Origin: Rhodospirillaceae bacterium MC!
GTDB lineage: Bacteria > Pseudomonadota > Alphaproteobacteria > MC1
Direction: 5' to 3'
Length of the DNA stretch: 64,000 nucleotides
Assembly: GCA_002632265.1 (NCBI GenBank)
Contig: NQOV01000007.1
Span: 119,583-183,582, forward strand
Shown here piece after piece: positions 4,789 to 59,959 of the stretch. Within the stretch, counting starts at the first letter, position 1, and each line of letters begins with the position of its first letter. The position numbers and the translations under genes were made by a program. Under the pieces are notes generated by a model. The model searched no databases. It had not been told where the DNA came from and saw only the letters and a list, made by a program, of their open reading frames with translations.

Positions 4789-5112
4789 GATTTTTATTCC
4801 TTTTTTAATTTTCTTTATGATTATTTTCTAATACTCTAATATATATACTCCTGACATAGATAATTAGAAAAAAATCTTTGTTTATATTAAATATGTTAAC
4901 AAATAATATTACGGCCTACTTTCCATAGATTATATCAGATCAGATTAATTGCTTTTATTACGCCTTTAAGTATGTATTTTTTATTTTATACTACTAATCT
5001 AATAGAAATTAACGTTTATTATTGAATTTGTTACATTGATCACACATGAATACATTTAAATTAAATTAATAAAACCAATATTTAACATGGTATAAATATA
5101 TTCATGTATATT

Positions 5113-5141
5113 AGTATACATCAGTTTAACTATTATGTCAA
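5113..5141 (-). promoter_or_regulatory. sigma70-type promoter for permease 2
   Basis: Minus strand TTGACA (5136-5141), 17-nt spacer, TATACT (5113-5118). It begins directly after the T-tract of the permease 3 terminator, giving a compact terminator-promoter junction. Confidence 0.75.
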
Positions 5142-5145
5142 GTAA

Positions 5146-5184
5146 AAAAAAGTAGGATGTATAACAAAACACACCCTACTTTTA
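5146..5184 (-). terminator. Rho-independent terminator of permease 3
   Basis: On the minus strand AAAAGTAGGGTGTGT pairs with ACATCCTACTTTT and is followed by a long T-run that merges into the -35 box of the permease 2 promoter. It lies about 25 nt after the permease 3 stop codon. Confidence 0.85.
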
Positions 5185-5209
5185 TTAGATATTTACTAAC
5201 TATATATCT

Positions 5210-6574: not shown

Positions 6575-6774
6575 GATTTTTTTTCCTTTTTTATTTTTTT
6601 TCTGAATCTATTTTAATATTTTAACAATTAAAACAGACTCATTTATTATTATTGTTATTGTTATTATTAGTAAGTATTACATATTTATCTCATACTTAGA
6701 TACACGAATATATACATGTTTTTCTTAATCATATTAAGATTGTATTAGAGTATATTTTGATTCGTATATGTTAT

Positions 6775-6803
6775 AGTATATATTAAATTAACAATCATAT
6801 CAA
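6775..6803 (-). promoter_or_regulatory. sigma70-type promoter for permease 3
   Basis: Minus strand TTGATA (6798-6803), 17-nt spacer, TATACT (6775-6780), in the same TTTTTTACTTGAYA context as the permease 2 promoter. The implied leader is about 195 nt. Confidence 0.7.
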
Positions 6804-6821
6804 GTAAAAAATATTCTTAAT

Positions 6822-6865
6822 AGATAAATAAATAATATATATAAGAAACTATATCTTATTTATCT
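6822..6865 (-). terminator. AT-rich hairpin upstream of the permease 3 promoter
   Basis: Minus strand AGATAAATAAGATATA can pair with TATATATTATTTATTTATCT and is followed by ATTAAGAATATTTTTT. It resembles the permease terminators but has no gene directly in front, so it may be a relic or a second terminator for permease 4 transcription. Confidence 0.4.
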
Positions 6866-6966
6866 AATAATTATTAGATATTTATTAAGTAACACAATGG
6901 CGGACTTTAAACATTTCGCATACTAAATATTTTAAAGTATAGTTTTGCAATTCTCTTACATGACAT

Positions 6967-7014
6967 AAAGGGTGTGAGAAAAACTCTAAAAAGAGTACTT
7001 TACCATGCCCCTTT
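6967..7014. repeat. dispersed hairpin repeat, family 1
   Basis: AAAGGGTGTGAGAAAAACTC is followed after a short loop by GAGTACTTTACCATGCCCCTTT, giving an imperfect long stem. The same GGGTGTGA-AAAA-CTC / GAGTGCTTTTTCAC-CCC pattern recurs near 8.93, 15.7, 33.5, 41.9 and 44.4 kb, always between genes. Confidence 0.6.
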
Positions 7015-7027
7015 ATTAGATAGAAAA

Positions 7028-7096
7028 ACTTAAGCGTTTATCTAAATGCTTTTGAAACTATCTAATTTCAACATAACATTAAATAAACGCTTAAGT
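7028..7096. repeat. 14-bp perfect inverted repeat with 41-nt loop
   Basis: ACTTAAGCGTTTAT (7028-7041) is the exact reverse complement of 7083-7096. It lies in the gap between permeases 4 and 3, just beyond a family 1 hairpin. No ORF is involved. It could be a structured RNA, a regulatory site or the remains of a small mobile element. Confidence 0.55.
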
Positions 7097-7256
7097 CAAT
7101 AAAAACTCGATGATAAACAGTGATTTTTATATTTATATTTAAAAAAACATCTAATATTAAAATTTTCTGCAAGAAATAAATGGTTTTTCATGGCTTTATA
7201 AATTAAAGTATCCGTTATAGTTGTGATTTTAAGTGAAATCTTTTTAAGATACAAAT

Positions 7257-7288
7257 AAGTAGGATGTGTAATAAAACACATCCTACTT
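7257..7288 (-). terminator. perfect 13-bp hairpin after permease 4
   Basis: AAGTAGGATGTGT (7257-7269) and ACACATCCTACTT (7276-7288) form a perfect 13-bp stem with a 6-nt loop. It is nearly the same sequence as the permease 3 terminator and lies about 40 nt after the permease 4 stop codon. Confidence 0.7.
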
Positions 7289-7329
7289 TTATTAATATTT
7301 ATTAAGTTACTAATATTAATATATTTTCA

Positions 7330-8688
7330 TTATGATTTTGAATCTTCAACCACGTGAGCCATAACTCTATTTTTATCATAAACGCTAACAAGCTTCATAA
7401 TGATAGCTAAAACTATAGCGGCCACGAATACATAGATTGCAAGTTCGAAGTATGCACCAGCCCAACCTTGGGTTTTAAACATATCCCCTTCGGCAATTGC
7501 ACCAAAGCTACCGCCTAAGGTAGACACAAAGTGGAATCCAACTAAAAAGGCACTACTTACAATCTTCTTGTTAAATGACATATTAACATATGTTAAGACC
7601 ACAAGTGGAATGAACGGATTAATAAATATAGCCATTTGTCTAACAATCATAGCTAAAACAAGACTCGGCATATAATGATCTGCTCCCATGCTATCATGCA
7701 GTTTTGCTGCTAGACCAAATAAAATAAAGCAAACTACAAAACCTAAAGAACAGACGATCAAGGATCTACTAGGATTTAATCTTTTAATTGGTCCTGAAGC
7801 TTTTAGCATTATAATCGCAATCCCCACATGCAGAGGAAAACCTATAGTATAAGTAATTCTTAAGGCTGTTTTCTGAAGATCAGCAGGCCAGAAATATAAG
7901 TTGTAACGTCCTAATTGTGCAAAGGAACTAGAACAAGCTACCCAAATTCCAAGGGCAAAAAGTATTAGAACATAAAAGCGTAAATTCTTAACTAAAAATT
8001 TAAAATCAGAGAATTTAAATTTGTTCTTAGATGTTCCCCTTGTATCCAGATTATTAAAGGGTTTTGTTTTTAAAGTAAATAACACAACGATCATTAAAAC
8101 CGCAGAGAAACTAGCTAAATAAAATCCAAATAATGGGCTAAATGTATAAACAAAAGCCATAGCTGATCCCATAATTACCCAACCAGCAAAACTGGCACTA
8201 CTAACTTTATCTTCTGTTCCATTATGTGCTAGAATATAACGAGCACAATAAGCCCAAGCTGCTGAACCACCTGCGATAACCACATATCCGAAGTAAATAC
8301 CGCCCAATAAACCAGCCATATAAAATAGTGTGGGATTATGGGTTAATAATAATGGTTTATATACGTATTGGAAGAAAGGACCTGCTGCCAAGCCTAAAAT
8401 CCCAAGACTATACATAACATAAGGACGCAGTTGGTTTTTATCTATCAACCAACCAAATAATGGCTTATAGAAAATCGCAACGAGACCTTTCATCGCTAGG
8501 ATTTCCCCAATTTTTAACGCATCCAAATGGACTTGTTTATCTAGCCATATGGCAAAGATTTCCGAAAGAAGTACCCCGCATATACAGGTGTGAAAAAACA
8601 TAACTAGCCAAATTTTAATCGAGGCCACTTTTTTGGAGTCTATGACTCCTTGCTCTTGTAGAGCTTCTATACTATCATAATCACTCAT
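7330..8688 (-). CDS. MFS permease, LacY-like oligosaccharide:H+ symporter family (copy 4)
   Basis: A 452-residue paralogue of the three downstream permeases. An upstream in-frame ATG at 8760 exists, but the ATG at 8688 is chosen because it begins MSDYDSIEALQ like the other copies and is preceded by AAAAAAAGGAATAAGATC, the same ribosome binding site leader. About 12 membrane segments are visible, with the LacY-like blocks KPLFGWLIDK, GGIYFGYVVIAGGSAAW and FINPFIPLVVLTYVNMSF. The 5' leader contains three 15-bp direct repeats (8726-8770) not seen in front of the other copies, suggesting separate control. Likely an inner-membrane glycoside importer. Confidence 0.8.
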   Translation of the reverse strand: MSDYDSIEALQEQGVIDSKKVASIKIWLVMFFHTCICGVLLSEIFAIWLDKQVHLDALKIGEILAMKGLVAIFYKPLFGWLIDKNQLRPYVMYSLGILGLAAGPFFQYVYKPLLLTHNPTLFYMAGLLGGIYFGYVVIAGGSAAWAYCARYILAHNGTEDKVSSASFAGWVIMGSAMAFVYTFSPLFGFYLASFSAVLMIVVLFTLKTKPFNNLDTRGTSKNKFKFSDFKFLVKNLRFYVLILFALGIWVACSSSFAQLGRYNLYFWPADLQKTALRITYTIGFPLHVGIAIIMLKASGPIKRLNPSRSLIVCSLGFVVCFILFGLAAKLHDSMGADHYMPSLVLAMIVRQMAIFINPFIPLVVLTYVNMSFNKKIVSSAFLVGFHFVSTLGGSFGAIAEGDMFKTQGWAGAYFELAIYVFVAAIVLAIIMKLVSVYDKNRVMAHVVEDSKS

Positions 8689-8725
8689 GATCTTATTCCT
8701 TTTTTTATTTTCTTCTTTGACGCCT

Positions 8726-8770
8726 ATCACTCTAGATAATATCGCTCTAGATAATATCACTATAGATAAT
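8726..8770. repeat. three tandem 15-bp repeats in the permease 4 leader
   Basis: ATCACTCTAGATAAT is repeated three times with single-base changes (8726-8740, 8741-8755, 8756-8770), 38-82 nt upstream of the permease 4 start. Each unit contains the palindrome TCTAGA or a one-base variant. Such iterons often are binding sites for a regulator; no regulator can be assigned. Confidence 0.7.
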
Positions 8771-9908: not shown

Positions 9909-11783
9909 ATGAAAAAATTTGAACAGTTTCACACAATAAAAACAGGCGAAGCTAAATTAACTAATGGTTTTTGGGCGAACCGTGTGGAAAACTATGCCGA
10001 TATCATCGATAATCTGGAAGAAGCATTGCTTAATGAAGAAAATGCCGCTCGCATGCTAAATTTCGGAATTGCTGCAGGGGAAATCGAGGGCGAGTTTTAT
10101 ATGAACGATTGGTCCGATGGCGATTGCTATAAATTCATCGAAGGTTGTGCCAATCAATACGCCGTTACGAAAGATGAGAGAATCCTAAAAGTTATCAATA
10201 AATACATTCCATGGATCGAAAAATCTCAAGAAGAAGACGGCTACATCGGAACTCAAACCTTACTTACCGACAAAACCCGCTGGACACATCTTGAAGTACA
10301 TGAAATATATAATTTCGGACATCTATTTACAATGGCCTGCGTTCATTACGAAGTAACTCAAGATGATCGCTTACTTAATGTGGCGAAAAAGGGTGCTGAT
10401 TATTTATGGAAATTATTTTCTCCACGTCCTAAAGAGCTGGCTCATTTTGGTACTAATCCAAGCCAAATCATGGGATTAGTGGAATTGTACGAAATTACAA
10501 AGGATAAAAAGTATCTAGATTTAGCTGATATCTTCGTCTCTATGCGTGGTGAAAGCCCAGAACTAGGTGGCGATGGCACGCAAAACTTCATCCCCTTACG
10601 TGATGAAACCCAACCTATCGGCCATGCGGTAAAAGGTGCTTATCTTTACGCTGGAGCAATGGATGTATACGGTCATACAGGCGATAAAACCTTGCTTAAT
10701 GCCATTGAGAAAATTTGGAAAGATCTTGTTAAAAGACGCATATATATTACAGGTGGAGCAGGCCCGCAATATGTGGGAATTTCCGATCGTGGAAATCTAG
10801 TGCGTGAAGCTTTTGCCTCGGAATACGATTTACCCTTGAGAGTTTCATACAATGAAACATGTGCCAATATTGCTGTAGCCATGTGGGCAAAACGCATGCT
10901 CCAAATTACAGGCGAAGCAGAATATGGCGATTGGATGGAAACAATCATGTTTAATGCAGGTATATCAGGCTCAAGCTTGGATATGAAAAGATATTTCTAT
11001 TCTAATCCTTTAGCCCACAGAGCTAATCATCACATTGAACCCACATTCCAACAATATACCCATGTTCCTAATGAACGCTTTTTCACTTTTGATTGTTGGT
11101 GTTGCCCACCACAATTACTTCGCACATTTACAGGAATGCCTAAATGGATATATTCTCTATCGGATTCAGGAGTAGCAATTAACCTATTCGGCGGTAGTGA
11201 ACTTAATACTACCTTAAAAAGTGGCGAAAAAGTGGCCATGAACATCGTAACTAATTATCCTTGGGATGAAAAAATAGCAATCAACATCGAAAACGCTCCT
11301 AAAGATATGGATCTAACATTCAGAATCCCCGCTTGGTGCGAAAATGCTACCCTAAACTCTAAAGCTATCACTTGCGGAATGCACACAATCAAAGTAAATT
11401 CAGGCGATACTATAATGATAGTCTTACCAATGCAAGCTCAACTTTACACATGTGATCCCCTACTAGAACAATCAAACGGAATGTTTGCAGTGAAAAGAGG
11501 GCCAGTAGTTTACTGCTTAGAGGGTAGCGATATCGAAAATAATATCTCAATTGATGAATTAACTATCCCAGAAGATACACAATTCACAGAAACCACAATC
11601 GACGAATTTCCTTATGGTATGGTAGGCTTGAAAGCTGATCTAGTCCATCGCCCACAAGGTCAAGGATTATATCAACCTGCTAAGAATAATAGTAAGAAAA
11701 AAGTATCTGTCCGCTTTATTCCATACTTCTCATGGGCCAATAGAGAAGAACAAGACATGAGTGTATGGCTACCACGTGCTTAA
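9909..11783 (+). CDS. GH127-family (DUF1680) glycoside hydrolase, probable beta-L-arabinofuranosidase, copy 1
   Basis: A 624-residue protein of the DUF1680/GH127 family, whose founding member HypBA1 is a cytoplasmic beta-L-arabinofuranosidase with a zinc-bound catalytic cysteine. Its N-terminal two thirds are an alpha/alpha-barrel. The zinc/catalytic residues can be matched: Glu316 and Cys318 in YNETCAN, and Cys398-Cys399 in CWCCPPQ (HypBA1 Glu338, Cys340, Cys417, Cys418). The C-terminal third has beta-rich segments including FRIPAWC and KRGPVVYCLEGSD, typical of the family. No signal peptide is present, so it acts in the cytoplasm. Start supported by TTAAGGAGTTACTT before ATG. It has its own promoter and terminator. 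The sulfatase nearby suggests the natural substrate may be sulfated. Exact sugar specificity is uncertain because the family also includes other activities. Confidence 0.85.
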   Translation: MKKFEQFHTIKTGEAKLTNGFWANRVENYADIIDNLEEALLNEENAARMLNFGIAAGEIEGEFYMNDWSDGDCYKFIEGCANQYAVTKDERILKVINKYIPWIEKSQEEDGYIGTQTLLTDKTRWTHLEVHEIYNFGHLFTMACVHYEVTQDDRLLNVAKKGADYLWKLFSPRPKELAHFGTNPSQIMGLVELYEITKDKKYLDLADIFVSMRGESPELGGDGTQNFIPLRDETQPIGHAVKGAYLYAGAMDVYGHTGDKTLLNAIEKIWKDLVKRRIYITGGAGPQYVGISDRGNLVREAFASEYDLPLRVSYNETCANIAVAMWAKRMLQITGEAEYGDWMETIMFNAGISGSSLDMKRYFYSNPLAHRANHHIEPTFQQYTHVPNERFFTFDCWCCPPQLLRTFTGMPKWIYSLSDSGVAINLFGGSELNTTLKSGEKVAMNIVTNYPWDEKIAINIENAPKDMDLTFRIPAWCENATLNSKAITCGMHTIKVNSGDTIMIVLPMQAQLYTCDPLLEQSNGMFAVKRGPVVYCLEGSDIENNISIDELTIPEDTQFTETTIDEFPYGMVGLKADLVHRPQGQGLYQPAKNNSKKKVSVRFIPYFSWANREEQDMSVWLPRA

Positions 11784-11839
11784 CACTACCTAGCTAGAAT
11801 TTAACTTCTATTGTTTAACTTAACTTGTGAAACTTACCT

Positions 11840-11877
11840 AATGGAAAGATGTAAATAATTTTATATCTTTCCATTTT
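11840..11877 (+). terminator. terminator of glycosidase 1
   Basis: AATGGAAAGAT pairs with ATCTTTCCATT (11-bp stem) and is followed by TTT. It lies about 55 nt after the stop codon. Confidence 0.7.
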
Positions 11878-12023
11878 GATTTGGAATTTACTATAACATG
11901 CAGTTATCCTAATATATAAGAAATCAGCCTTAGTTAGATATTTTAATGATCATATTTAATCTCATCAATACAAATAGTTAGCATATGAAAGCTAATATTT
12001 TTCCAAATAAATATAAAAATTAC

Positions 12024-12052
12024 TTGACACATGAATAAAAATATGATCTAAT
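12024..12052 (+). promoter_or_regulatory. sigma70-type promoter for glycosidase 2 and sulfatase
   Basis: TTGACA (12024-12029), 17-nt spacer, TCTAAT (12047-12052), in the same sequence context as the promoter of glycosidase 1. The leader of about 160 nt ends in short ATATCA repeats (about 12168-12188). Confidence 0.75.
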
Positions 12053-12221
12053 GAATGTTAGTTAGATTTATTACTAATATAAATATGACTTATGAGAATA
12101 TGTAAAACAAACTAAGCTATTACAAGATATAACACTATAATAAAAGATATCTCTCAAATAGAGATAACAATATCAATATCAATATCAATGTAATTACAAA
12201 AACAAGAACAAGGAATTAATC

Positions 12222-14096
12222 ATGAAAAAATTCGAACAATTTCACACAATCAAAACAGGAGAAGCTAAATTAACTAATGGCTTTTGGGCGAAACGTGTGG
12301 AAAAATACTCAAGTATAATCGACAATTTAGAATCAGCCCTATTAAATGAAGACAACGCCGCTCGCATGCTAAACTTTGGAATTGGTGCAGGCGAAATCGA
12401 AGGCGAATTTCATATGAATAGCTGGTCCGATGGCGATTGCTATAAATTTCTTGAGGGCTGTGCCAATCAATATGCTGTTACAAAAGATAAAAAAATCCTA
12501 GATGTAATGAATAAATACATCCCATGGATCGAAAAATCTCAAGAAGAAGATGGATATATCGGAACACATACCTTATTGACCGACAAAGTCCGTTGGGATT
12601 ATCCAGAATTGCACGAATTATACAATTTAGGGCATCTATTTACCTTGGCATGCGTCCATTATGAAGTAACAGAAGATGATCGCTTGCTTAATGTGGCAAA
12701 AAAGGCTGCTGATTATTTATGGGATCTATTCTCGCCACGTCCGAAAAAATTGGCTCATTTCGGCTTTAATCCTAGTCAAATCATGGGATTAGTGGAATTA
12801 TACGAAATCACAGACGATAAAAGATATCTAGATTTAGCTGATATCTTCGTATCTATGCGTGGAGTTACTCCAGAAATCGGTGGCGATTGTAATCAAAACT
12901 TTATTCCTTTACGTGAAGAAACTCAACCTATCGGCCATGCGGTAACAGGTGCTTACCTTTACGCTGGAGCGGTGGACGTCTACGGCCATACGGGCGATAA
13001 AACCTTACTAACCGCTGTGGAACGCATTTGGAAAGAACTTATAAAACGACGCATATATATTACTGGCGGAGTGGGCCCACAATATGCCAGTTATTCAGAT
13101 CGTGGTAATCTAGTTTATGAAGCTTTCGCATCGGAATATAATTTACCCTTAAGAGTTTCATATAATGAAACATGTGCTAATATTGCCGTAGCAATGTGGG
13201 CAAAACGCATGTTACAAGTTACAAATGACGCAGAATATGGCGATTGGATGGAAACAATCATGTTTAACGCAGGGATATCAGGATCAAGCTTGGATATGAC
13301 ACGCTATTTTTATTCAAACCCTGCCGCACATAGAGCATGTCATCACATCGAGCCGACATTTGCACAATATTCCCATGTCCCTAATCAACGTTTCTTTACT
13401 TTTGATTGTTGGTGTTGTCCTCCGCAATTACTTCGCACATTTACAGGAATGCCAAAGTGGATATATGCCCTATCAGATACAGGAGTAGCCATTAACCTAT
13501 TCGGTGGTAGTGAACTTAATACTACCTTAAAAAATGGCGAAGAAGTTAACATGAACATTGTAACTAATTATCCTTGGGATGAGAAAGTTGAAATCAACGT
13601 TCTTAAAGCCCCTAAGGATATGAATCTAACATTCAGAATCCCTGCTTGGTGCGATAAAGCTACCTTAAATGGTAAAGCTATCAACTGCGGAATGCACACA
13701 ATTCAAGTAAATTCAGGCGATACCTTAACGATCATCCTACCAATGCAAGCTCAACTATATACCGCCAACCCATTACTAGAACAATCAAACGGAATGTTTG
13801 CAGTGAAAAGAGGGCCAGTAGTTTACTGCTTAGAGGGTAGCGATATCGAAAATAACATCTCAATTGATGAACTGGCTATCCCTAAAGATGTTAAGTTCAG
13901 TGAAACAACAATCGAAGAGTTCCCCTATGGTATGGTAGGCTTGAAAGCTGATCTTATACATCGTCCGCACAGTGATAATTTATATCAACCTGTGGCAGAT
14001 GATAAAGAGAAAAAAGTCCCTGTCCGCTTTATTCCATACTTCTCATGGGCAAATAGAGAAGAGCAAGATATGAGCGTATGGATTCCTAGAGCATAA
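12222..14096 (+). CDS. GH127-family (DUF1680) glycoside hydrolase, probable beta-L-arabinofuranosidase, copy 2
   Basis: A 624-residue tandem paralogue of the preceding gene, same length with no gaps and the same active-site motifs: YNETCAN (Glu316, Cys318) and CWCCPPQ (Cys398, Cys399). Differences cluster in stretches such as residues 115-135 and 215-225, so the two enzymes may handle different linkages or substituents. No signal peptide, so cytoplasmic. The start is supported by ACAAGGAATTAATC before ATG. The sulfatase gene follows 115 nt downstream without an obvious promoter, so the two are probably co-transcribed. Duplication including the promoter region is visible. Confidence 0.85.
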   Translation: MKKFEQFHTIKTGEAKLTNGFWAKRVEKYSSIIDNLESALLNEDNAARMLNFGIGAGEIEGEFHMNSWSDGDCYKFLEGCANQYAVTKDKKILDVMNKYIPWIEKSQEEDGYIGTHTLLTDKVRWDYPELHELYNLGHLFTLACVHYEVTEDDRLLNVAKKAADYLWDLFSPRPKKLAHFGFNPSQIMGLVELYEITDDKRYLDLADIFVSMRGVTPEIGGDCNQNFIPLREETQPIGHAVTGAYLYAGAVDVYGHTGDKTLLTAVERIWKELIKRRIYITGGVGPQYASYSDRGNLVYEAFASEYNLPLRVSYNETCANIAVAMWAKRMLQVTNDAEYGDWMETIMFNAGISGSSLDMTRYFYSNPAAHRACHHIEPTFAQYSHVPNQRFFTFDCWCCPPQLLRTFTGMPKWIYALSDTGVAINLFGGSELNTTLKNGEEVNMNIVTNYPWDEKVEINVLKAPKDMNLTFRIPAWCDKATLNGKAINCGMHTIQVNSGDTLTIILPMQAQLYTANPLLEQSNGMFAVKRGPVVYCLEGSDIENNISIDELAIPKDVKFSETTIEEFPYGMVGLKADLIHRPHSDNLYQPVADDKEKKVPVRFIPYFSWANREEQDMSVWIPRA

Positions 14097-16216: not shown

Positions 16217-16801
16217 ATGAAAAAAATACTCCCTACAGCATTATCTGTATTACTACTTGGTTCTTCATATGCCTATGCTAAAACTACCACATATGCAAAC
16301 CCATTGACTAGTAATATAAGCTATCAAGCGGAATCAGCAGAAGACGCACAACCAATAAGTATTAGTTTTACTTATGATAATTCTTTGTCTCAATCTTCTA
16401 TCCAACAAACTATCAATGAATCATCTCTAACCGCATCTAGCAAAAAAGATGACGATGACGAAGATGATAAAGATGTAGACAAAAAGAAGAAAAAACACGA
16501 CGATGAAGACGTGGATAAAAAGAAAAAAGACGACGACGACGAAGATGTCGACAAAAAGAAAAAAGACGACGACGACGAAGATGTCGACAAAAAGAAAAAA
16601 GACGACGATGACGAAGATGTCGACAAAAAGAAAAAGGACGACGATGACGAAGATGTCGACAAAAAGAAAAAAGACGACGATGACGAAGATAGCGACGATG
16701 ATGACGATGACAGTGGTAAACACAAGAAATCTAAACATAAAAAGTCGAAACACAAGAAGTCTAAGCATAAGAAGTCTAAACACAAAAAATCTAAGCATTA
16801 G
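16217..16801 (+). CDS. secreted Asp/Lys-repeat protein, function unknown
   Basis: A 194-residue protein with a clear signal peptide (MKKILPTALSVLLLGSSYAYA, probable cleavage after AYA). Residues about 22-74 are Ser/Thr-rich without recognisable fold. From about residue 75 the protein is built from five copies of a 12-residue unit DDDDEDVDKKKK (36-bp DNA repeats with a GTCGAC site in each), followed by an Asp run and a tail of five KHKKS units. Strongly alternating acidic and basic blocks suggest an intrinsically disordered surface or periplasmic protein, possibly binding divalent cations or anionic polymers; this is inference. The DNA repeats make it prone to length variation. Followed by a strong terminator at 16919-16952. 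Confidence 0.75.
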   Translation: MKKILPTALSVLLLGSSYAYAKTTTYANPLTSNISYQAESAEDAQPISISFTYDNSLSQSSIQQTINESSLTASSKKDDDDEDDKDVDKKKKKHDDEDVDKKKKDDDDEDVDKKKKDDDDEDVDKKKKDDDDEDVDKKKKDDDDEDVDKKKKDDDDEDSDDDDDDSGKHKKSKHKKSKHKKSKHKKSKHKKSKH

Positions 16802-16980: not shown

Positions 16981-17521
16981 AAACTCTTAACAAACACTCG
17001 CACTCTTTGAGTAGATCTCTTAACAGACGATCCTAACATAAGAATGTTAGACACAACTTGTTCGATCACATCTGGAAGAGTGTGAAATATAGTGAATTGT
17101 CTATAATATCAGTATGTTTAATGTTGATGTTGTAAGTTGTAAGTCCTATTCTCATTCAATATCATTTCTCTTACTTATTCCTGCAGGCCTAAACTAAGTA
17201 TAATATAAGTACACATAATACTACTTTAGATCTATTGTAATAAATTAAGACCATATCTATAAATAACCACTCGCTAAACAGTACTTAAAGTATCTTAATG
17301 TATATTTATCATATATCTAGTTTAGGCCAGCACAAACAAACAAATAAACAGATAAAACAACTTACATATATTATAACTTGGAATGATCATAACTCATAGA
17401 TAAACTCACATATAATAAGTATGTATGTTTTTTATTTGTGGGAATATATAATATAAAATCGCAATTTGTACGAGATTGCAAATATAAAGTATTTAGGAGA
17501 TATTATATGGCTCGCCCTTAG
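16981..17521 (+). repeat. composite repeat element, locus A
   Basis: Non-coding element sharing parts with loci at 21.5 kb and 56.9-58.6 kb. It begins with two degenerate copies of the 34-bp unit (CTCTTAACA at 16984 and 17017), then the conserved core with a palindrome (CTAACATAAGAATGTTAG) and a (T)CTGGAAGAGTGTG motif. Next is a 143-bp module bounded by a perfect 11-bp inverted repeat GGCCTAAACTA (17186-17196) / TAGTTTAGGCC (17318-17328). It ends with AGGAGATATTAT directly before a five-codon ORF (ATG at 17507, TAG at 17521). The region lies between the Asp/Lys-rich protein and rnd genes, both converging on it. Confidence 0.6.
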
Positions 17522-21544: not shown

Positions 21545-21671
21545 AGATCTTGACAGACGGTCCAAACATAGCATGTTTGATCGCATGTACTGGAGTGTGG
21601 AGAAAGTGATCTTGTGTAATATCCTTATGTTTTATTATTAGGTATAACATCATGGGTATGTTATATCTAAT
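21545..21671 (+). repeat. composite repeat element, locus B
   Basis: One 34-bp-type unit (AGATCTTGACAGACGGTCC), then a core with the palindrome AAACATAGCATGTTT and GATCGCATGTACTGGAGTGTG, followed by AGTGATCTTGTGTAATATCCTTATGTTT, which matches locus A over the same span. It ends with a 14-bp inverted repeat ATTAGGTATAACAT (21637-21650) / ATGTTATATCTAAT (21658-21671). The GGCCTAA module found in loci A and C is absent. Confidence 0.6.
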
Positions 21672-46892: not shown

Positions 46893-47350
46893 TTTGTATT
46901 ATCTTTATATATCTAAAGGTTAGTTGTATATTATAAGATACAACTTATTTAACAAAAAGTCAATAAAAATCCCAACAGAAATATATTTCCGTTGGGGAAT
47001 TAAGTAAAGATCCGCAGGATTGGGAGAAATGAGCTAAGGTGTGCTTGTAATCGGTACGCCGTGTACTTAATGCTTACACTAGCCCTATTTCCAAGTGCAT
47101 ATTAGCCCACTTACCACGATCCGCAGGATTGGGAGAAATGGGCTAAGGTGTGCCTTTAATTAGGGCGACATGTACGACATGTTTACCTTAGCCCTAATTA
47201 AAGGTGCATATTAGCCCATTTATCACGATCCTATAGGATTGGGAGAAATGGGATAAGATGTGCTTGGAAATAGGGCGACGTGTACTCACGTCTACATAAG
47301 CCCTATTTCCAAGTGCAGATTAGCCCATTTATCACGATCCTGCATGGTGT
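46893..47350. repeat. tandem 109-bp hairpin repeats between oppA and ldhA
   Basis: Three units of exactly 109 bp start at 47009, 47118 and 47227, with a partial fourth start at 47336. Each reads GGATTGGGAGAAATGRG..., then an arm such as CCTTTAATTAGGGC, a small apical palindrome (GACGTG-TACT-CACGTC in unit 3) and the complementary arm GCCCTAATTAAAGG, closing with TTAGCCCATTTATCACGATCC. Unit 2 and unit 3 have different arm sequences but both remain paired (GGAAATAGGGC / GCCCTATTTCC in unit 3), showing compensatory change. The first unit's inner arm has decayed. The 46893-47008 part is the ldhA upstream region. Confidence 0.8.
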
Positions 47351-48976
47351 CTATTTTACGAAGTACATATAACGAACGGGGTGAGTATCTACGGCGTTGG
47401 AATAGTATCCTTTTAGTTTGGTAGATTTAAGGTTCTTAGAGATGTAGAAGTGAATAGGAATGATTGGCATATCTTTCATAAGCTGTCCTTCTGCTTTATA
47501 GAAGTAGTTGGCACGTTTTTTCATGTTTACTTCTGACGCTCCTAATTTCATATATTTGTTATATACAGGATTATTATAGCTTGAATAGTTATTTGATCCG
47601 CCGATTTTTCCGTATAGTAGGAATAGGAAATCATAGGCATCGTTATAATCAGGCACCCACGCAGCACGACCGATTTCAAAGTGTTTACGTTCAAGATTAT
47701 CATAGAGTGTTGTAGCGTCGGAGTTTGAAAGCTTAACTTTTACTCCTATTTTTTTCCAAAAGCTGGAAATTGCCACTAGTTCTTTTCTGTGTTCTGTATT
47801 TGTATTATAGCTAACGTTTACTTGTAGCGGATGAGCTTTGGAATAGCCAAGATCAGCCATGAATTTTTTAGCGGTAGCTAATCTTTTACTCATGGGCCAT
47901 TTGCTCCAATACACTTTATTCGCCCCTGATATACCAGCTAGACCACTAGGTACGAAGTTATAAGCAGGGCTATAACCTTTTAGTACAGTTTTGATCAGCG
48001 TTTTACGGTTGATAGACATTGATAAGGCTTGTCTTAACTTCACTTGATCGTAAGGTTTTTTAAGCAAGTTAAAGCTTAGATATTCCACGCCTTGATAAGG
48101 AGCGATTATGGCAGTGCCTGGCATTTCCTTATTGTATAGATCATATTTGGCGGTATCAAAGATATCTACCCAATCAACTTCGCCAGTTTTGAAACGTCTT
48201 GCCAAAGCCTCTTCGTCTTCTTGGGAATAGAAGACAACATTTTTAATTTTAACGTTTTTAGCGTCATAGAAGTTTTCATCTTTAGTTAGATTAATTACAG
48301 TAAAGCCTTTACTTTTTACTACTTTGTAAGGACCATTGGAAACTATATGAGCGTCTCTCGACCATTGTTTACCATATTTTTCTACTACGTGTTTAGGGAT
48401 GATACTTGCCACTTGGTGGGTTTGCAATCCTGCAAAAAATGGGGTGGGATTAATTAAATCGAATTGGACAGTTAAATTATTAATTTTCTTTACGCCTAAA
48501 GCTGTTGTGGGCTTTTTGCCTGTGTTAACTTCTTTACCGTTTTTCACTAAGTACATGAAACTCGCATATTTAGATGCGGTTTTAGGATCCATTAAATGAC
48601 GATAAGAGAATACTACATCATCGGCGGTTATTGGTTTACCGTCTGACCATTTTAAGCCTTTACGTAAATGAAAGACAAATATTCTACCGCCGTTTTTAGT
48701 TTCCCATTTGCTGGCAAGACCTGGAACAGTTTGACCCTTAGCGTTAATGGTGGTTAAGCCTAAAAATACATTAGTGGCTACCATACGTTCCCATGTACCA
48801 TTCATTTGTTGTGGATCTAGCGTTTTTGGTAAACCTGAATTCCCAATGTGTATGGTATCATTAAGATTACCACTAGAACGAGCATACGCACTTGAAGAAA
48901 TCAGAGAGCTACTTAAGGTAAAAGCCCCGACTATCACACTTGATAGAATTAGCTTATTTATATATTTATTTTTCAT
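47351..48976 (-). CDS. oppA: periplasmic oligopeptide-binding protein (SBP family 5)
   Basis: A 541-residue ABC-transporter solute-binding protein with a signal peptide (MKNKYINKLILSSVIVGAF to SSAYA). The family 5 pattern is clear: LPKTLDPQQMNGTWERMVATNVFLGL, WSDGKPITADDVVFSYRHLMDPKTAS, and DYNDAYDFLFLLYG. Length matches E. coli OppA (543). The ATG at 48976 is chosen over an upstream TTG because it begins the signal peptide and follows AAAGGGTTTAATATC. No permease or ATPase genes are adjacent, so it is an orphan receptor. The 292 nt upstream (48977-49268) hold nothing recognisable. Confidence 0.88.
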   Translation of the reverse strand: MKNKYINKLILSSVIVGAFTLSSSLISSSAYARSSGNLNDTIHIGNSGLPKTLDPQQMNGTWERMVATNVFLGLTTINAKGQTVPGLASKWETKNGGRIFVFHLRKGLKWSDGKPITADDVVFSYRHLMDPKTASKYASFMYLVKNGKEVNTGKKPTTALGVKKINNLTVQFDLINPTPFFAGLQTHQVASIIPKHVVEKYGKQWSRDAHIVSNGPYKVVKSKGFTVINLTKDENFYDAKNVKIKNVVFYSQEDEEALARRFKTGEVDWVDIFDTAKYDLYNKEMPGTAIIAPYQGVEYLSFNLLKKPYDQVKLRQALSMSINRKTLIKTVLKGYSPAYNFVPSGLAGISGANKVYWSKWPMSKRLATAKKFMADLGYSKAHPLQVNVSYNTNTEHRKELVAISSFWKKIGVKVKLSNSDATTLYDNLERKHFEIGRAAWVPDYNDAYDFLFLLYGKIGGSNNYSSYNNPVYNKYMKLGASEVNMKKRANYFYKAEGQLMKDMPIIPIHFYISKNLKSTKLKGYYSNAVDTHPVRYMYFVK

Positions 48977-49268
48977 GATATTAAACCCTTTATAAAAAAT
49001 TTTTATCTCAAGAAACACTTTAACACAGATTTTTTAATAAATCAAGTATTTTATTTATAATTTTATATAAATCAGATAAAACTTACCTTTTAGATCAAGA
49101 AAATAACATGTTACCACTATAAAATATTTTTCTTATTCGTCATATCATACAAAAAAGCCTTAAATATAAAATTTAGATTGTGAAAGTTAAATAATTACCC
49201 AAATAACTCTTATGTTAAAGTTATTTTATCTTTACTTGATTTTTTCTTGTCTGGTTTATTTTATTCTG

Positions 49269-50144: not shown

Positions 50145-50492
50145 ACTTTATAAGATCCTTAACTATAACCATAAAAAGAATTAAGATGTGCCTTAGGGCG
50201 ACATGTACTCACGTCTACATAAGCCCTAAGATAAGATACATATTAGTAGCCCACTCATCCACCACCGCAAGCCCTAGGATTGGGAGAAATGGGCTAAGAT
50301 GTGCCTTAACTTAGGGCGACGTGTACTCACGTCTACATAAGCCCTAATTAAAGGTGCAGATTAGCCCATTTATCACGATCCTATAGGATTGGGAGAAATG
50401 GGATAAGATGTGCTTGTAAATAGGGCGACATGTACTCACGTCTACATAAGCCCTATTTCCAAGTGCAGATTATCCCATTTCTCTCAATCCTA
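50145..50492. repeat. 109-bp hairpin repeats between prfA and prmC
   Basis: The same repeat as at 47.0 kb: one partial copy (from about 50184), then units whose GGATTGGG starts are exactly 109 bp apart (50277 and 50386). The last unit closes with a 23-bp outer stem, TAGGATTGGGAGAAATGGGA... against ...TCCCATTTCTCTCAATCCTA (one mismatch), and this right arm includes the prfA stop codon TAG at 50490-50492. The hairpin therefore forms the immediate 3' end of the prfA reading frame. Confidence 0.8.
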
Positions 50493-51545
50493 TTCGAAGT
50501 CGGCGAGCTTGGATGCTTGATCTTCGGCTATTAGGGCGTCGAGCATTTCATTCATATCGCCGTTCATGAAAGAATCTAGAGTGTATAATGTGAGATTAAT
50601 TCTGTGATCACTTATACGCCCTTGGGGAAAGTTGTAGGTTCTTATACGTTCGGATCTATCGCCTGATCCTACTTGTGATTTACGATTTTCGGCACGTGCT
50701 TTTTGTGAGTCTTGTAATTGCTGATCGTAAATTCTTGCTCTTAGCATTTTCATGGCTTTTTCACGGTTTTTTATTTGACTACGTTCATCTTGACACTGGG
50801 AAACTACACCAGTGGGCAAGTGAGTTATACGCACTGCTGAATCTGTTGTGTTTACGTGCTGACCGCCTGCTCCTGATGACCTGTAAGTATCCACTCGCAG
50901 ATCGGCAGGATTGATCTTGATGTCCACTTCTTCCACTTCTGGCAATACTGCTACGGTGGCCGCTGATGTGTGAATTCTGCCACTTGATTCGGTGGATGGC
51001 ACACGCTGAACACGGTGAACGCCTGATTCAAACTTCAAACGTCCAAACACGTCTTTTCCGCTGATTGAGACTACTACTTCTTTATATCCACCGATCCCGA
51101 TTTCACTTGATTCGACAATTTCGCTTTTCCATCCTTGAGAATTGCCGTATCTTTGATACATTTCACAGAGATCTGCTGCAAATAAGGCTGCTTCGTCGCC
51201 CCCTGTACCTGCTCGAATTTCAAGCATTGCGGATTTCTCATCGGCTTTATCTTTGGGAATGAGAGAGACTTTTACTTCTTGTTCTAAGGTGGGGATGAGA
51301 TCCTTTAATTCTAGAACTTCCATTTGTGCAAGTTCTTTCATTTCGGGATCTTTGAGCATTTCTTGAGCGTCTGCATATGATTTGCGTGCGTCTGTAAGTT
51401 TGTTTACCACTTCCACCACAGGATTAAGATCCGCATATTCTTTGCTCATGGTTACAAAATCGCTACCGCCTGCACTTTCCGAAAGCAATACCGCCAATTC
51501 CTTATGACGTGCTACCACTGATTTTAATTTATCATCTAAAGACAT
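50490..51545 (-). CDS. prfA: peptide chain release factor 1
   Basis: A 351-residue RF1 decoding UAA and UAG. The codon-recognition motif is PST in [17 protein letters not shown] (position of the RF1 PAT), and the catalytic GGQ is in [23 protein letters not shown]. Standard length. The stop codon overlaps the outer arm of a 109-bp repeat. Followed on the same strand by prmC, which modifies the GGQ. Confidence 0.97.
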
Positions 51546-56169: not shown

Positions 56170-56874
56170 ATGCAATATGATGTAACGCTACTAAAAGGTA
56201 AGCTAATTAAACGCTATAAGAGATTTATGGCAGATATCGAACTTGAAAATGGTTCTATCATTACCGCCCATTGTACCAATTCTGGAAGTATGAAAACGGT
56301 TTTAGAGATCGGAGCTACTGTCTATGTTTCGCCAGCAGATAACCCCAAACGTAAATTAAAATATACTTGGGAAATGATCGAGCTAAATGGCCAGCTTGTG
56401 GGAATCAATACTTCAATTCCCAATAAGATCGGCTTTGAAGAAATATCAGCAAACAATATCCCAGAACTTGCAGGCTACGAAATCGTAAAAAAAGAAGTGA
56501 AATACGGTAAAAACAGCCGTATAGATATCTATCTAGAAGATCCTAAACTTGGAATCCACTATGTGGAAATCAAAAACGTAACCCTATCATACGGCAACAA
56601 CCTTGCCGAGTTCCCTGATTCCGTAACCACAAGAGGAACAAAACACTTACACGAGTTAATAGATATGGTAAAAGAAGGACATAAAGCAAGTATGTTATAT
56701 ATTATCCAACGTCAAGACTGCCACACCTTTACCACCGCAAAAACAATCGACCCCAACTATCACCAAGCCCTACTAGACGCAAAAAAAGCAGGCGTCAACA
56801 TCCTCGCCTACGACTGCAAAATCACCCCCACCTCTATCACTCTAAACAATAAAATAAACATCGACTTAACATAA
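56170..56874 (+). CDS. sfsA: sugar fermentation stimulation protein SfsA
   Basis: A 234-residue SfsA protein, a DNA-binding/nuclease-like fold of unclear role. Diagnostic stretches: GKLIKRYKRFMADIELENG, AHCTNSGSMKTVLEIGA, KYGKNSRIDIYL, VEIKNVTLSYGNNLAEFPD, TTRGTKHLHEL. It ends 4 nt before the large 34-bp repeat array begins. Confidence 0.93.
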   Translation: MQYDVTLLKGKLIKRYKRFMADIELENGSIITAHCTNSGSMKTVLEIGATVYVSPADNPKRKLKYTWEMIELNGQLVGINTSIPNKIGFEEISANNIPELAGYEIVKKEVKYGKNSRIDIYLEDPKLGIHYVEIKNVTLSYGNNLAEFPDSVTTRGTKHLHELIDMVKEGHKASMLYIIQRQDCHTFTTAKTIDPNYHQALLDAKKAGVNILAYDCKITPTSITLNNKINIDLT

Positions 56875-56878
56875 ACAC

Positions 56879-57830
56879 CCTATCCTATCCGATCAAACAT
56901 CTTAACATACACACCACCATATCCTATCAAACATCTTAACATACACACCACCGTATCCTATCAAACATCTTGCCATACACACCACCATATCCTATCAAAC
57001 ATCTTGCCATACACACCACCATATCCGATCAAACATCTTGCCATACACACCACCATATCCGATCAAACATCTTGACATACAAGACGCCCTATCCTATCAA
57101 ACATCTTGACATACAAGACGCCCTATCCTATCAAACATCTTGACATACACACTACTATATCCGATCAAACATCTTGCCAGACACATTACCGTATCCTATC
57201 AAACATCTTAACATACAAGACGCCCTATCCTATCAAACATCTTAACATACAAGACTCCATATCCGATCAAACATCTTAACATACACACCACTATATCCTA
57301 TCAGACATCTTGCCATACACACCACCATATCCGATCAAACATCTTGCCATACACACTACCGTATCCTATCAGACATCTTGACATACACACTACCATATCC
57401 TATCAGATATCTTGACATACACACTACCATATCCTATCAGATATCTTGACACACACCACCATATCCGATCAGACATCTTAACATACACACCACCATATCC
57501 GATCAGATATCTTGACAGATACACCACCATATCCTATCAGATATCTTGCTAGACACACTACCATATCCTATCAGATATCTTGACATACACACTACCGTAT
57601 CCTATCAGATATCTTGACATACGCACCACCATATCCGAGTAGATATCTTGACAGACACCACAACATATCCTATCAAACATCTTGACATACACAATACCAT
57701 ATCCTATCAAACATCTTGACATACACACCACCATATCCTATCAGATATCTTGACATACAAGACTCCATATCCTATCAGATATCTTGACATACACACTACC
57801 ATATCCTATCAGATATCTTGGCAGATAATT
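56879..57830 (+). repeat. tandem array of about 28 copies of a 34-bp unit (composite element, locus C)
   Basis: The unit is roughly TATCCTATCAAACATCTT + GACATACACACCACCA, spaced 32-35 bp (34 typical), with point variants and no unique spacers. Units near the left end read CAAACATC, the middle CAGACATC, and the right half CAGATATC, a gradient that indicates local amplification. Each unit carries TTGACA or a near variant. The array abuts the conserved core at 57815-57905. Confidence 0.9.
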
Positions 57831-57905
57831 CAAACATAACAGTGTTACATATAGAATGTTTGATTGCATGTACTGGAGTTTGTCATCTCATTCATTGTCC
57901 CTAAC
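57815..57905 (+). repeat. conserved core of the composite element, locus C
   Basis: ATCTTGGCAGATAATTCAAA then an interrupted palindrome (AAACAT ... ATGTTT) and GATTGCATGTACTGGAGTTTG, closely matching the core at 21.55 kb (GATCGCATGTACTGGAGTGTG). Confidence 0.65.
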
Positions 57906-57942
57906 ATGGGTATTTTAAACATTAATGTATTTTCCATGTGCT

Positions 57943-58088
57943 GGCCTAATATAGGTGTAATATAAGTATATATAACACTAATATAGATATATTATAACGA
58001 ATTGATGATATGTTTAAAAACAGTTATCTTATTAAATCGCACTTAAAATAGCAATAGATGTACTCATATTATATATTTAGTTTAGGCC
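57943..58088 (+). repeat. GGCCTAA-bounded module C1
   Basis: A 146-bp AT-rich segment whose ends form the perfect inverted repeat GCTGGCCTAA / TTAGGCCAGC (counting two flanking bases). Same architecture as the 143-bp module at 17186-17328. Confidence 0.65.
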
Positions 58089-58125
58089 AGCAAGTATAAT
58101 AATCAATAGAGTAAAAAAACAACCA

Positions 58126-58153
58126 TTGTTCTTTATAGATGTTCTGTTATAAT
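58126..58153 (+). promoter_or_regulatory. promoter for the first tiny ORF
   Basis: TTGTTC (58126-58131), 16-nt spacer, TATAAT (58148-58153), about 50 nt before the tiny ORF and its strong AAGGAGG ribosome binding site. Confidence 0.55.
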
Positions 58154-58201
58154 TTAGAAATGACAATAACAAGCATTCAGATTTAAGGAGGAAGATATAA
58201 T

Positions 58202-58264
58202 ATGACTGTTATTATATCTTCTATTTATTCTTATATTTCACGGCCTAAGGTATATATATTGTGA
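58202..58264 (+). CDS. tiny hydrophobic peptide ORF 1 (20 residues)
   Basis: ATG at 58202 follows AAGGAGGAAGATATAAT, the best Shine-Dalgarno sequence in the window. The peptide is 20 residues, Ile/Ser/Tyr-rich, ending in RPKVYIL; its last codons read through the GGCCTAA end of module C2. The second tiny ORF nearby resembles it. By size, hydrophobicity and the adjoining hairpin it could be a small membrane peptide of the type I toxin kind, or a leader peptide; neither is shown. Confidence 0.4.
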   Translation: MTVIISSIYSYISRPKVYIL

Positions 58265-58370
58265 ATATATCTAATAATATCTTAAGTATAGTTTAATAAA
58301 ATATTATTTTGAGATATGTACTTAATGTATTATTATACATCTAAACTAACATTGTATATACTTTAGGCCG
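58241..58370 (+). repeat. GGCCTAA-bounded module C2
   Basis: 130 bp with ends CGGCCTAAGGTATATATA and TGTATATACTTTAGGCCG, complementary over about 17 positions with few mismatches. Confidence 0.65.
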
Positions 58371-58423
58371 TAAATTGAAACTTATGAGAATTGTAATATG
58401 ATATCGTCTTTTATAAATAAAAT

Positions 58424-58480
58424 ATGGCTGTTTTATATTCTATTTATTATTCTATTCTACGGTCTAAAATATGTAGATAA
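58424..58480 (+). CDS. tiny hydrophobic peptide ORF 2 (18 residues)
   Basis: An 18-residue ORF similar to ORF 1 (MAVLYSIYYSI versus MTVIISSIYSYI, then RSK versus RPK). It also reads into the GGCCTAA-type end of the next module. It has no clear ribosome binding site, so it may be a decayed copy. Confidence 0.3.
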   Translation: MAVLYSIYYSILRSKICR

Positions 58481-58603
58481 TACGTATATATAATAGTGCT
58501 TTAAGTGTAATTTAATAGAGTGAGATTTCTGGATATATCATTAATTTATTATAACATATCTAAACTAATATTATATATACTTATACTAAATCATCTTTAG
58601 GCC
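58461..58603 (+). repeat. GGCCTAA-bounded module C3
   Basis: 143 bp with ends GGTCTAAA and TTTAGGCC (one mismatch, a G-T pair in RNA). Followed by AGTAGGAATTAT and a two-codon ORF. The rest of the gap (58604-58882) is AT-rich upstream sequence of the LacI regulator with nothing else recognised. Confidence 0.6.
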
Positions 58604-58882
58604 ATGAATTGAAAAAGTAGGAATTATATGGAATAGGTGGTTATGTTTGTGGGTAAAGATATCGTAAAATATATTCTTTGATTAAAATACTAATACAGAA
58701 AAGTAATATTTTTCTTTCTCGTAATAAATCCTTAATACATTTTGTCATATAATACTATACATAGTATATAAAACACTCTTTTCAATAGAATTAAATATTG
58801 TAAATTAATATGAAAACAATAGCATATCAGTATTATATACATATAATAATATAATATTCAAATGGAGTTTTATAAATATACC

Positions 58883-59959
58883 ATGGCCAAAGTACGATTA
58901 AAAGATATTGCTGAAGTTGCCAAACTTTCACTTTCTACAGTGTCAAGAGCTTTAAATAATGATCCAGAAATTTCCTTGGAAACTGTAAAATACGTTAAAC
59001 TAGTAGCCGAACAAATGGGCTATATCAAAAATAAGGACGCCAGTTCCCTACGCACTGGCACGAATCAAAACATTGTTCTTGTGAGTGTTGCAGGAACAAA
59101 CAATAACGATATCTTTTTCAGCCCCAAATATCACGCCATGCAGGATGGAGCTTTTAAGGCTGTAGAAAAAACAAATCTTAGCTTATTCATCTTACCAGTT
59201 AACTTAGAAAACATCATCGAAAAACTTGATACATTATGTAAAGAAAACAAACCCCAAGGATTAATTATCGATGGTCAGTATCTACGAGTGGAAACCATAA
59301 AAGCCATACAGAAATTTCAAGTCCCCATGGTGGTATTACAGAATAATGAATGTCTTAGCGTTCCCAATATTATGATCAATCAAGATGTGTACGTCTATGA
59401 AGCGATAAAATCTCTGATGTTAAAGGATGTTAAGAAAATATATCTTTGTCATTCTTTAGTTCAGAATTCATCTTCTAATCTCTATAAAGAAGGTGTTAAC
59501 ATGGCTCTAAATGATAGCCTAAAACAATACGATATTCGCCACCAATACGAAGAGTTATTCAGCAATAACGCAGGATTCTCAAGCTTTGTCGAACGTGTTA
59601 TCAGAAAAAATAAGGATAAAAACATCGGCTTTATTGTTTCATCCACAAGTTACAGTGCGTCAATTTATAGTGCTTGTGCTAGAACTAAAGCAGAAATAGG
59701 CAAAACTGTTCACTTAGCTACCCTAACATCCATTCCCGAATTCTTCGCCATTACCCATGTGGCATCCAACATATGGTTTGTAGATTTCAAAGAGCTAGGA
59801 ACATTATTAGTAGATACTCTCTTGCAATTCATATCAGGCGTGCCAGCGAACCAGCTACAAAAAAATATCTCTCCCACACGCATAAGAAAAGACTACATCG
59901 AAAAACGCCAGCAAGCCCAACTACCAAAAGAAACCAAAATTACCATTTTAGATCTATAA
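58883..59959 (+). CDS. LacI-family transcriptional regulator
   Basis: A 358-residue sugar-responsive regulator: N-terminal helix-turn-helix and hinge (VRLKDIAEVAKLSLSTVSRALNNDPEIS) followed by a periplasmic-binding-protein-like ligand domain (about 65-345). The start at 58883 gives the usual MAKVRLKDIA N-terminus; an ATG at 58862 is also open. The motif is clear but the target is unknown; it could control the sugar locus at 1-15 kb or the PTS gene, neither adjacent. It lies immediately after the composite repeat element. Confidence 0.9.
   Translation: MAKVRLKDIAEVAKLSLSTVSRALNNDPEISLETVKYVKLVAEQMGYIKNKDASSLRTGTNQNIVLVSVAGTNNNDIFFSPKYHAMQDGAFKAVEKTNLSLFILPVNLENIIEKLDTLCKENKPQGLIIDGQYLRVETIKAIQKFQVPMVVLQNNECLSVPNIMINQDVYVYEAIKSLMLKDVKKIYLCHSLVQNSSSNLYKEGVNMALNDSLKQYDIRHQYEELFSNNAGFSSFVERVIRKNKDKNIGFIVSSTSYSASIYSACARTKAEIGKTVHLATLTSIPEFFAITHVASNIWFVDFKELGTLLVDTLLQFISGVPANQLQKNISPTRIRKDYIEKRQQAQLPKETKITILDL

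What the first reader, a model, noticed from the sequence alone, without database searches (positions are those of the whole stretch)
56879..58603. Composite non-coding element: 34-bp array, palindromic core, GGCCTAA modules and tiny ORFs
The 2-kb gap between sfsA and a LacI regulator has an ordered architecture: about 28 units of 34 bp, a conserved core, then three successive GGCCTAA...TTAGGCC segments with tiny ORFs at their junctions. The core and unit recur at about 17.0 and 21.5 kb in the same orientation with different unit numbers. I do not recognise this combination. Possibilities: a non-autonomous mobile element, a regulatory RNA/peptide system, or a nucleoid- or replication-related site.
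Basis: partly seen in the sequence, partly recalled or inferred. Interest (0 to 1): 0.8.

Follow-up and report, generated by a model that had tools for sequence, protein, structure and literature searches.

The report
Gene-end repeat mosaic with nested MITEs
The gap between sfsA and the LacI regulator is a pile-up of two genome-wide, lineage-specific repeat families: a 33/34-bp tandem-repeat element that sits just after gene ends, and palindromic mini-transposon-like elements. It is not a new regulatory device, but it shows an unusual class of self-complementary DNA palindromes.

Summary
A 27.6-copy, 34-bp array (56886-57820) runs into a core (57816-57913), followed by three related GGCCTAA/GGTCTAA...TTAGGCC segments. 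Searching the same genome (an alphaproteobacterium by protein similarity, with no held relative below class) shows these are copies of two dispersed families. (1) A "unit-core" element: 45 core hits in 579 kb of selected stretches. It begins about 45 nt after a stop codon, points the same way as the upstream gene in 42/45 cases, never sits between divergent genes, and has 1-28 tandem 33/34-bp units. (2) A roughly 290-bp palindromic, TA-flanked MITE-like element whose centre is GGCCTAA...TTAGGCC, often inserted in or just after the core; the window carries three decayed copies. "Tiny ORFs" are by-products of the MITE terminus. The best surprise is a 17-bp form, GGCCTA(A/T)5TAGGCC (47 copies, absent from 384 other genomes of the class). 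Its flanking arms differ at nearly every locus yet stay self-complementary, with no G.U preference, which points to DNA template-switch copying rather than RNA selection. I read the locus as a mosaic of mostly parasitic repeats in a safe gene-end niche, closest to BrickBuilt, BOX and REP/BIME. No RNA, peptide or replication function is supported.

The parts
56170..56874 (+). sfsA, upstream co-directional gene (stop codon just before the array)
   Evidence: NCBIfam TIGR00230, 233.7 bits
56886..57820 (+). 34-bp minisatellite, 27.6 units, consensus ATCTTGACATACACACCACCATATCCTATCAAAC; homologous to 33-bp arrays at other gene ends
   Evidence: TRF; homologous array on contig C7, E=4.6e-7; unit profiles
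57816..57913 (+). core of the unit-core family (decayed copy of the class with CATGTACTGGAG)
   Evidence: nhmmer E=7.7e-10 against the family profile; alignment A1
57943..58088 (.). GGCCTAA...TTAGGCC module 1 (146 bp), centre of a MITE-like element that lacks its left arm
   Evidence: fold z=-4.94
58082..58168 (+). right arm of module 1, ending GAAATGACAA (58157-58166) followed by TA
   Evidence: nhmmer E=4.5e-13; terminus listed
58185..58264 (+). AAGGAGG + ATG 'tiny ORF' (20 aa from 58202); lies in an inverted pair of MITE-terminus sequences, not a conserved gene
58242..58369 (.). module 2 (128 bp), GGCCTAA...TTAGGCC, decayed MITE copy
   Evidence: fold z=-8.18
58413..58467 (-). partial left arm of module 3
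   Evidence: nhmmer E=2.4e-5
58461..58603 (.). module 3, GGTCTAA...TTAGGCC, decayed MITE copy
   Evidence: fold z=-1.47
58862..59959 (+). LacI-type regulator, downstream gene
   Evidence: NCBIfam LacI-family matches below equivalog cut-offs
17018..17120 (+). second copy of unit(1)+core in the window, after an intrinsic terminator
   Evidence: nhmmer E=1.4e-15; terminator
17186..17328 (.). MITE module downstream of that core
   Evidence: fold z=-5.68
21548..21632 (+). third copy of unit(1)+core in the window, without a GGCC module
   Evidence: nhmmer E=8.2e-13

Best explanation
The region is a nested mosaic of dispersed, non-coding, probably selfish repeats in the tolerated space after sfsA. 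Layer 1 is a unit-core element at the gene end; its first 33/34 bp has been amplified in tandem, most likely by replication slippage or recombination, to 28 units here (1-21 elsewhere). Layer 2 is a roughly 290-bp, TA-flanked, palindromic MITE-like element. It was spread in the past by a Tc1/IS630-type (TA-targeting) transposase that is no longer found in the assembly; here there are three copies in a row, all decayed. A 17-bp mini form of the same centre (GGCCTA(A/T)5TAGGCC) forms palindromes elsewhere whose arms are kept complementary by intra-strand template-switch copying. Shown: family membership, copy numbers, order, orientation and distance to stop codons, TA flanks, MITE lodged in core, arm covariation without G.U bias. 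Inferred: slippage, the lost transposase, template switching, and absence of a host function.
For: Own-genome search: 107 matches to the GGCCTAA segments and 47 to a core consensus; profile search gives 45 core hits in 579 kb. Three focal modules in one 19-copy family. Upstream gene co-directional 42/45, no divergent placement, 5' end nearer the stop codon in 37/41; first unit typically 23-67 nt after the stop. Units are 33 bp elsewhere, 1-21 per locus. Upstream genes are unrelated housekeeping and other genes. TIR plus TA in 22/26 termini against 9.7% TA background. MITE lodged in the core in L047 and L004. Mini palindromes: 91.5% cells paired against 73.6% in shuffles, 116 two-sided against about 8 one-sided changes; GT 5 against AC 10. 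Lineage-restricted: core and mini palindrome absent from 384 class genomes.
Against: No empty site in a relative could be compared (no held relative below class). No PF13358 or PF01797 transposase in the 95.5%-complete assembly, so mobility is historical and indirect. The narrow distance to the stop codon and the co-directional bias (13 against 3 in tandem spacers, p=0.02) are stronger than a pure safe-harbour model needs and could reflect a gene-end function or a targeted insertion.
Confidence: 0.72

Rival explanations
1. The unit-core element is a functional gene-end device, a Rho-type (factor-dependent) terminator or mRNA 3'-end element, with the array as an enlarged loading site.
For: Co-directional, about 45 nt after stop codons. 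Gene ends with a core are C-rich right after the stop (C/G 2.57 against 1.41 and 1.08) and have intrinsic terminators less often (4/22 against 15/35 convergent, p=0.08). The focal array is strongly C>G (4.87).
Against: Other arrays are not C>G (0.57-1.43). Several cores lie downstream of an intrinsic terminator. No conserved RNA structure. The terminator difference is not significant. The element is found after only a minority of genes.
Confidence: 0.15
2. The whole array+core+modules is a single composite non-autonomous mobile element.
For: The order unit array, core, GGCC module recurs; 27/46 cores have a module downstream and 0/46 upstream.
Against: 19/46 cores have no module within 450 bp and 30/59 intergenic modules have no core pointing at them within 800 bp. 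At some loci the MITE, with its own TA-flanked ends, splits the core.
Confidence: 0.08
3. Regulatory RNA or small-peptide system encoded by the modules.
For: AAGGAGG-ATG at 58185-58204 and stable predicted folds of modules 1 and 2.
Against: The SD-like GGAGAAGATATAATATGG is the MITE terminus; in other copies it reads ATG GAA TGA, two codons then stop. No Rfam hit. No two-sided covariation in the MITE interior. The mini palindromes show no G.U preference.
Confidence: 0.03

Closest known systems
BrickBuilt minisatellite-MITE of Porphyromonas gingivalis (PMC4596501)
   Same: Tandem short units with flanking non-repeat parts, intergenic, about 20 copies, species-restricted, another MITE found inside one copy
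   Different: 23-bp unit in a different phylum; BrickBuilt has small inverted-repeat ends around the array, not seen here; no strong gene-end orientation is described in the parts I read
BOX elements of Streptococcus pneumoniae (PMC3049150)
   Same: Modular, a variable number of tandem middle units, intergenic, over-represented between convergent genes
   Different: No boxA-Bn-C bracket: the tandem unit here is the 5' end itself; no conserved stem-loop of the core; sequence relation not seen
RUP-type IS630/Tc1 MITEs (PMC2229807)
   Same: Palindromic, A+T-rich, TA at the ends, non-autonomous
   Different: Longer (about 290 bp), different ends, no cognate IS630 transposase found here
REP/BIME palindromes (PMC3733652)
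   Same: Short palindromes, extragenic, next to gene 3' ends, between convergent or tandem genes
   Different: Conserved centre GGCCTA(A/T)5TAGGCC with variable arms, instead of a conserved stem with GTAG or CGTC tag; no RAYT transposase
Quasipalindrome template switching (PMC7202029) and coding palindromes of Nematomorpha mtDNA (PMC6649704)
   Same: Inverted-repeat arms kept perfect although sequence varies; template copying proposed
   Different: Here dispersed copies share one fixed 17-bp centre in a bacterial genome

Membership tests
IS630/Tc1-type MITE (GGCCTAA modules) | Terminal inverted repeats | tested here: met
   TTGTTATTCC...GGAATAACAA ends on roughly 290-bp copies; focal module 1 keeps only the right end
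IS630/Tc1-type MITE (GGCCTAA modules) | TA target duplication | tested here: inconclusive
   22/26 termini followed by TA against 9.7% background; no empty site available
IS630/Tc1-type MITE (GGCCTAA modules) | Cognate transposase with the same ends | tested here: not met
   No PF13358 hit in the assembly; no long TIR pair; so called MITE-like, not filed as an IS630 MITE
REP/BIME | GTAG or CGTC tag at one end of a conserved 20-40 bp palindrome | tested here: not met
   Conserved part is the centre, arms vary
REP/BIME | RAYT (Y1) transposase | tested here: not met
   No PF01797 hit
REP/BIME | Extragenic, downstream of genes | tested here: met
   59/64 modules intergenic, none between divergent genes
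BOX | Two end modules enclosing a tandem middle module and forming one stem | tested here: not met
   Array is at the 5' end; RNAalifold gives 0 pairs for the core
BrickBuilt | Minisatellite with leader and tail inside small inverted-repeat ends | tested here: inconclusive
   Array plus tail (core) present; no leader or inverted ends seen
Known RNA family | Match to an Rfam model | tested here: not met
   0 hits at gathering threshold for the window and at E<=5 for 56800-58900
Rho-dependent terminator | C-rich, G-poor transcript after the stop codon in the family | tested here: not met
   Only the focal array is C>>G (4.87); other arrays 0.57-1.43

The most novel reading that the evidence does not exclude
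GGCCTA(A/T)5TAGGCC is a palindrome seed: once present, fold-back copying at its centre turns neighbouring DNA into an inverted copy, so dispersed copies share a 17-bp centre but have locus-specific, perfectly complementary arms. At L209:12168 one arm contains 9 bp of the local 33-bp unit and the other arm is its inverted copy.
Probability: 0.22. Interest if true: 0.7.

Novelty: new variant of a known kind. Interest (0 to 1): 0.45.

Why it matters
It shows how several bacterial repeat families stack at gene ends, and gives a countable natural set (47 palindromes with one centre and different arms) in which template-switch palindrome copying can be told apart from RNA selection. The gene-end anchoring (about 45 nt after the stop, co-directional) of a minisatellite element is unusually clear and makes terminator against safe-harbour models testable by RNA 3'-end mapping.

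Tried and rejected
(1) Core as structured RNA: fold z 0.01, alifold 0 pairs, a hand-drawn long stem not followed up. (2) Rfam: nothing. (3) Rho terminator: composition not conserved between arrays, terminator depletion not significant. (4) Unit hairpin: best 5-bp stems pair in at most 83% of cells, no convincing covariation. (5) Core motif in GTDB contigs and viral contigs: none, although the own genome may be left out. (6) IS630 and Y1 transposases: none. (7) 33-bp arrays as coding repeats: the one array inside an ORF (L211, 187 aa) lies after the stop of an oligopeptide-binding-like gene (named by eye, not searched) and is judged spurious.

Full report
CHECK. The array is real: 27.6 copies of 34 bp at 56886-57820, with units listed. 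The core follows directly. Then come GGCCTAA...TTAGGCC at 57943-58088 and 58242-58369, and a variant GGTCTAA...TTAGGCC at 58461-58603. Modules 1 and 2 fold better than shuffles (z -4.94 and -8.18), module 3 hardly (z -1.47). The core of this copy does not (z 0.01), so "palindromic core" is not confirmed.

GENOME. The window is G000:C11:119583-183582 of a 2.05-Mb, 19-contig assembly, 34.7% G+C in the window. SfsA is nearest to Alphaproteobacteria (up to 57% identity), and all 40 genomes returned as relatives are only of the same class, so this is an isolated lineage.

FAMILY 1, UNIT-CORE. A profile search of 579 kb (own-genome stretches plus the window) gives 45 core hits; 24 align. Two sub-types differ by a 15-nt stretch (ACATAGCGATGTTGCACAAAGTTTGTTCGATC and AACATAGCATGTTTGATCGCATGTACTGG). 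The tandem unit is the 5' part of the element. Other arrays have 33-bp units, consensus GTCTTGACAGACGGTCGCCCTATTCGGGCGGAT, with up to about 21 units; the focal array is the 34-bp variant and matches the C7 array at E=4.6e-7. The upstream gene is co-directional in 42/45. In 41 assigned cases the flanks are 25 convergent, 13 tandem-same, 3 tandem-opposite and 0 divergent; 38 co-directional compares with a random-placement mean of 23.7 (sd 3.3 for 45 draws; maximum 36 in 20,000). Tandem spacers alone give 13 against 3, p=0.02. The first unit mostly begins 23-67 nt after the stop codon. Three convergent spacers carry cores in both directions. Upstream genes are diverse, for example GMP synthase, a DNA gyrase/topoisomerase IV subunit A, MnmG and alanine racemase.

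FAMILY 2, GGCC MODULES. There are 107 blast matches in the genome. In the stretches, modules fall into two main sizes: about 37 of 16-17 bp and about 20 of 107-146 bp. The long form has outer arms of about 80 bp ending in GGAATAACAA followed by TA; 22 of 26 termini are followed by TA. In L047 and L004 this element sits inside the core. The three focal modules align with 16 other copies; module 1 keeps its right arm and TA-flanked end, module 3 part of its left arm. No IS630-type DDE_3 or Y1 transposase is in the assembly.

TINY ORFS. The SD-ATG at 58185-58204 lies in an inverted pair of MITE terminus sequences; the terminus GGAGAAGATATAATATGGAATGACAATA has an accidental SD and ATG and would code Met-Glu-stop in other copies. 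The remaining small ORFs are array frames or decayed arms.

MINI PALINDROMES. GGCCTA(A/T)5TAGGCC occurs 47 times in the genome, its reversed control 0 times, and neither core nor mini palindrome is found in 384 other class genomes. The 34 in hand have arms extending a median 13 bp and up to 22 bp; 31 different 11-nt arms occur among the 34. Pair counting: 91.5% paired, 14 variable pairs all with two-sided changes, 116 two-sided against about 8 one-sided cells, and slid controls only 30-46% paired. Among inner-arm departures there are 5 G.T and 10 A.C. RNA selection would tolerate G.U over A.C; copying at DNA level would not. In L209 the array-side arm holds 9 bp of a 33-bp unit and the far arm is its inverted copy, one case that favours copying over insertion into a ready-made palindrome. 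The long modules show no two-sided covariation. Template switching at quasipalindromes is known in E. coli (PMC7202029), and palindrome maintenance of unknown mechanism in Nematomorpha mtDNA (PMC6649704).

FUNCTION. Gene ends with a core are C-rich after the stop and slightly poorer in intrinsic terminators (p=0.08), which tempted me towards Rho termination, but other arrays are not C-rich and several cores follow intrinsic terminators. BOX and other pneumococcal repeats are likewise concentrated between convergent genes, which their authors read as parasitic DNA tolerated there (PMC3049150); REPs likewise sit near gene 3' ends (PMC3733652). I therefore prefer parasitic repeats in a safe harbour, with gene-end targeting or function as the main open alternative.

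LIMITS. Stretches were chosen around hits, genes were called by a simple ORF rule, no relative exists for empty-site comparison, and no expression data were available.

Noticed in passing
window 47009-47340 and 50192-50493: Another palindromic tandem repeat family, 109-bp units with TAGGGCGACGTGTACTCACGTCTACATAAGCCCTA, again directly after the stop codons of minus-strand genes (47351-49018 and 50490-51545).
   Followed up: partly
L211:5476-5690, L236:15132-15270, L231:5490-5600: A second short element with the same TIR (TTGTTATTCCAAGTTATA...) but a different interior, about 110-215 bp, without the GGCC centre; sometimes in tandem.
   Followed up: partly
L076 (C19:167319), L077 (C14:446), L078 (C5:46300): Three contig ends carry a core copy with the same score and extent, suggesting assembly breaks in a longer, nearly identical repeat.
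   Followed up: no
window 1305-8760 and 9909-14096: Three 454-aa ORFs plus one of 476 aa form a tandem set of paralogues (the one scanned is an MFS permease), next to two 624-aa ORFs (the first matches an aceric acid hydrolase model below cut-off) and a sulfatase-like gene: looks like a sugar-use cluster.
   Followed up: no
window 16470-16690: 36-bp in-frame repeat inside the 194-aa ORF (acidic/lysine-rich low-complexity protein).
   Followed up: no
L024, L030 and L037, upstream of the MITE match: Other simple tandem runs (TGTTATC, GGATTGT and similar) lie directly beside MITE copies.
   Followed up: no
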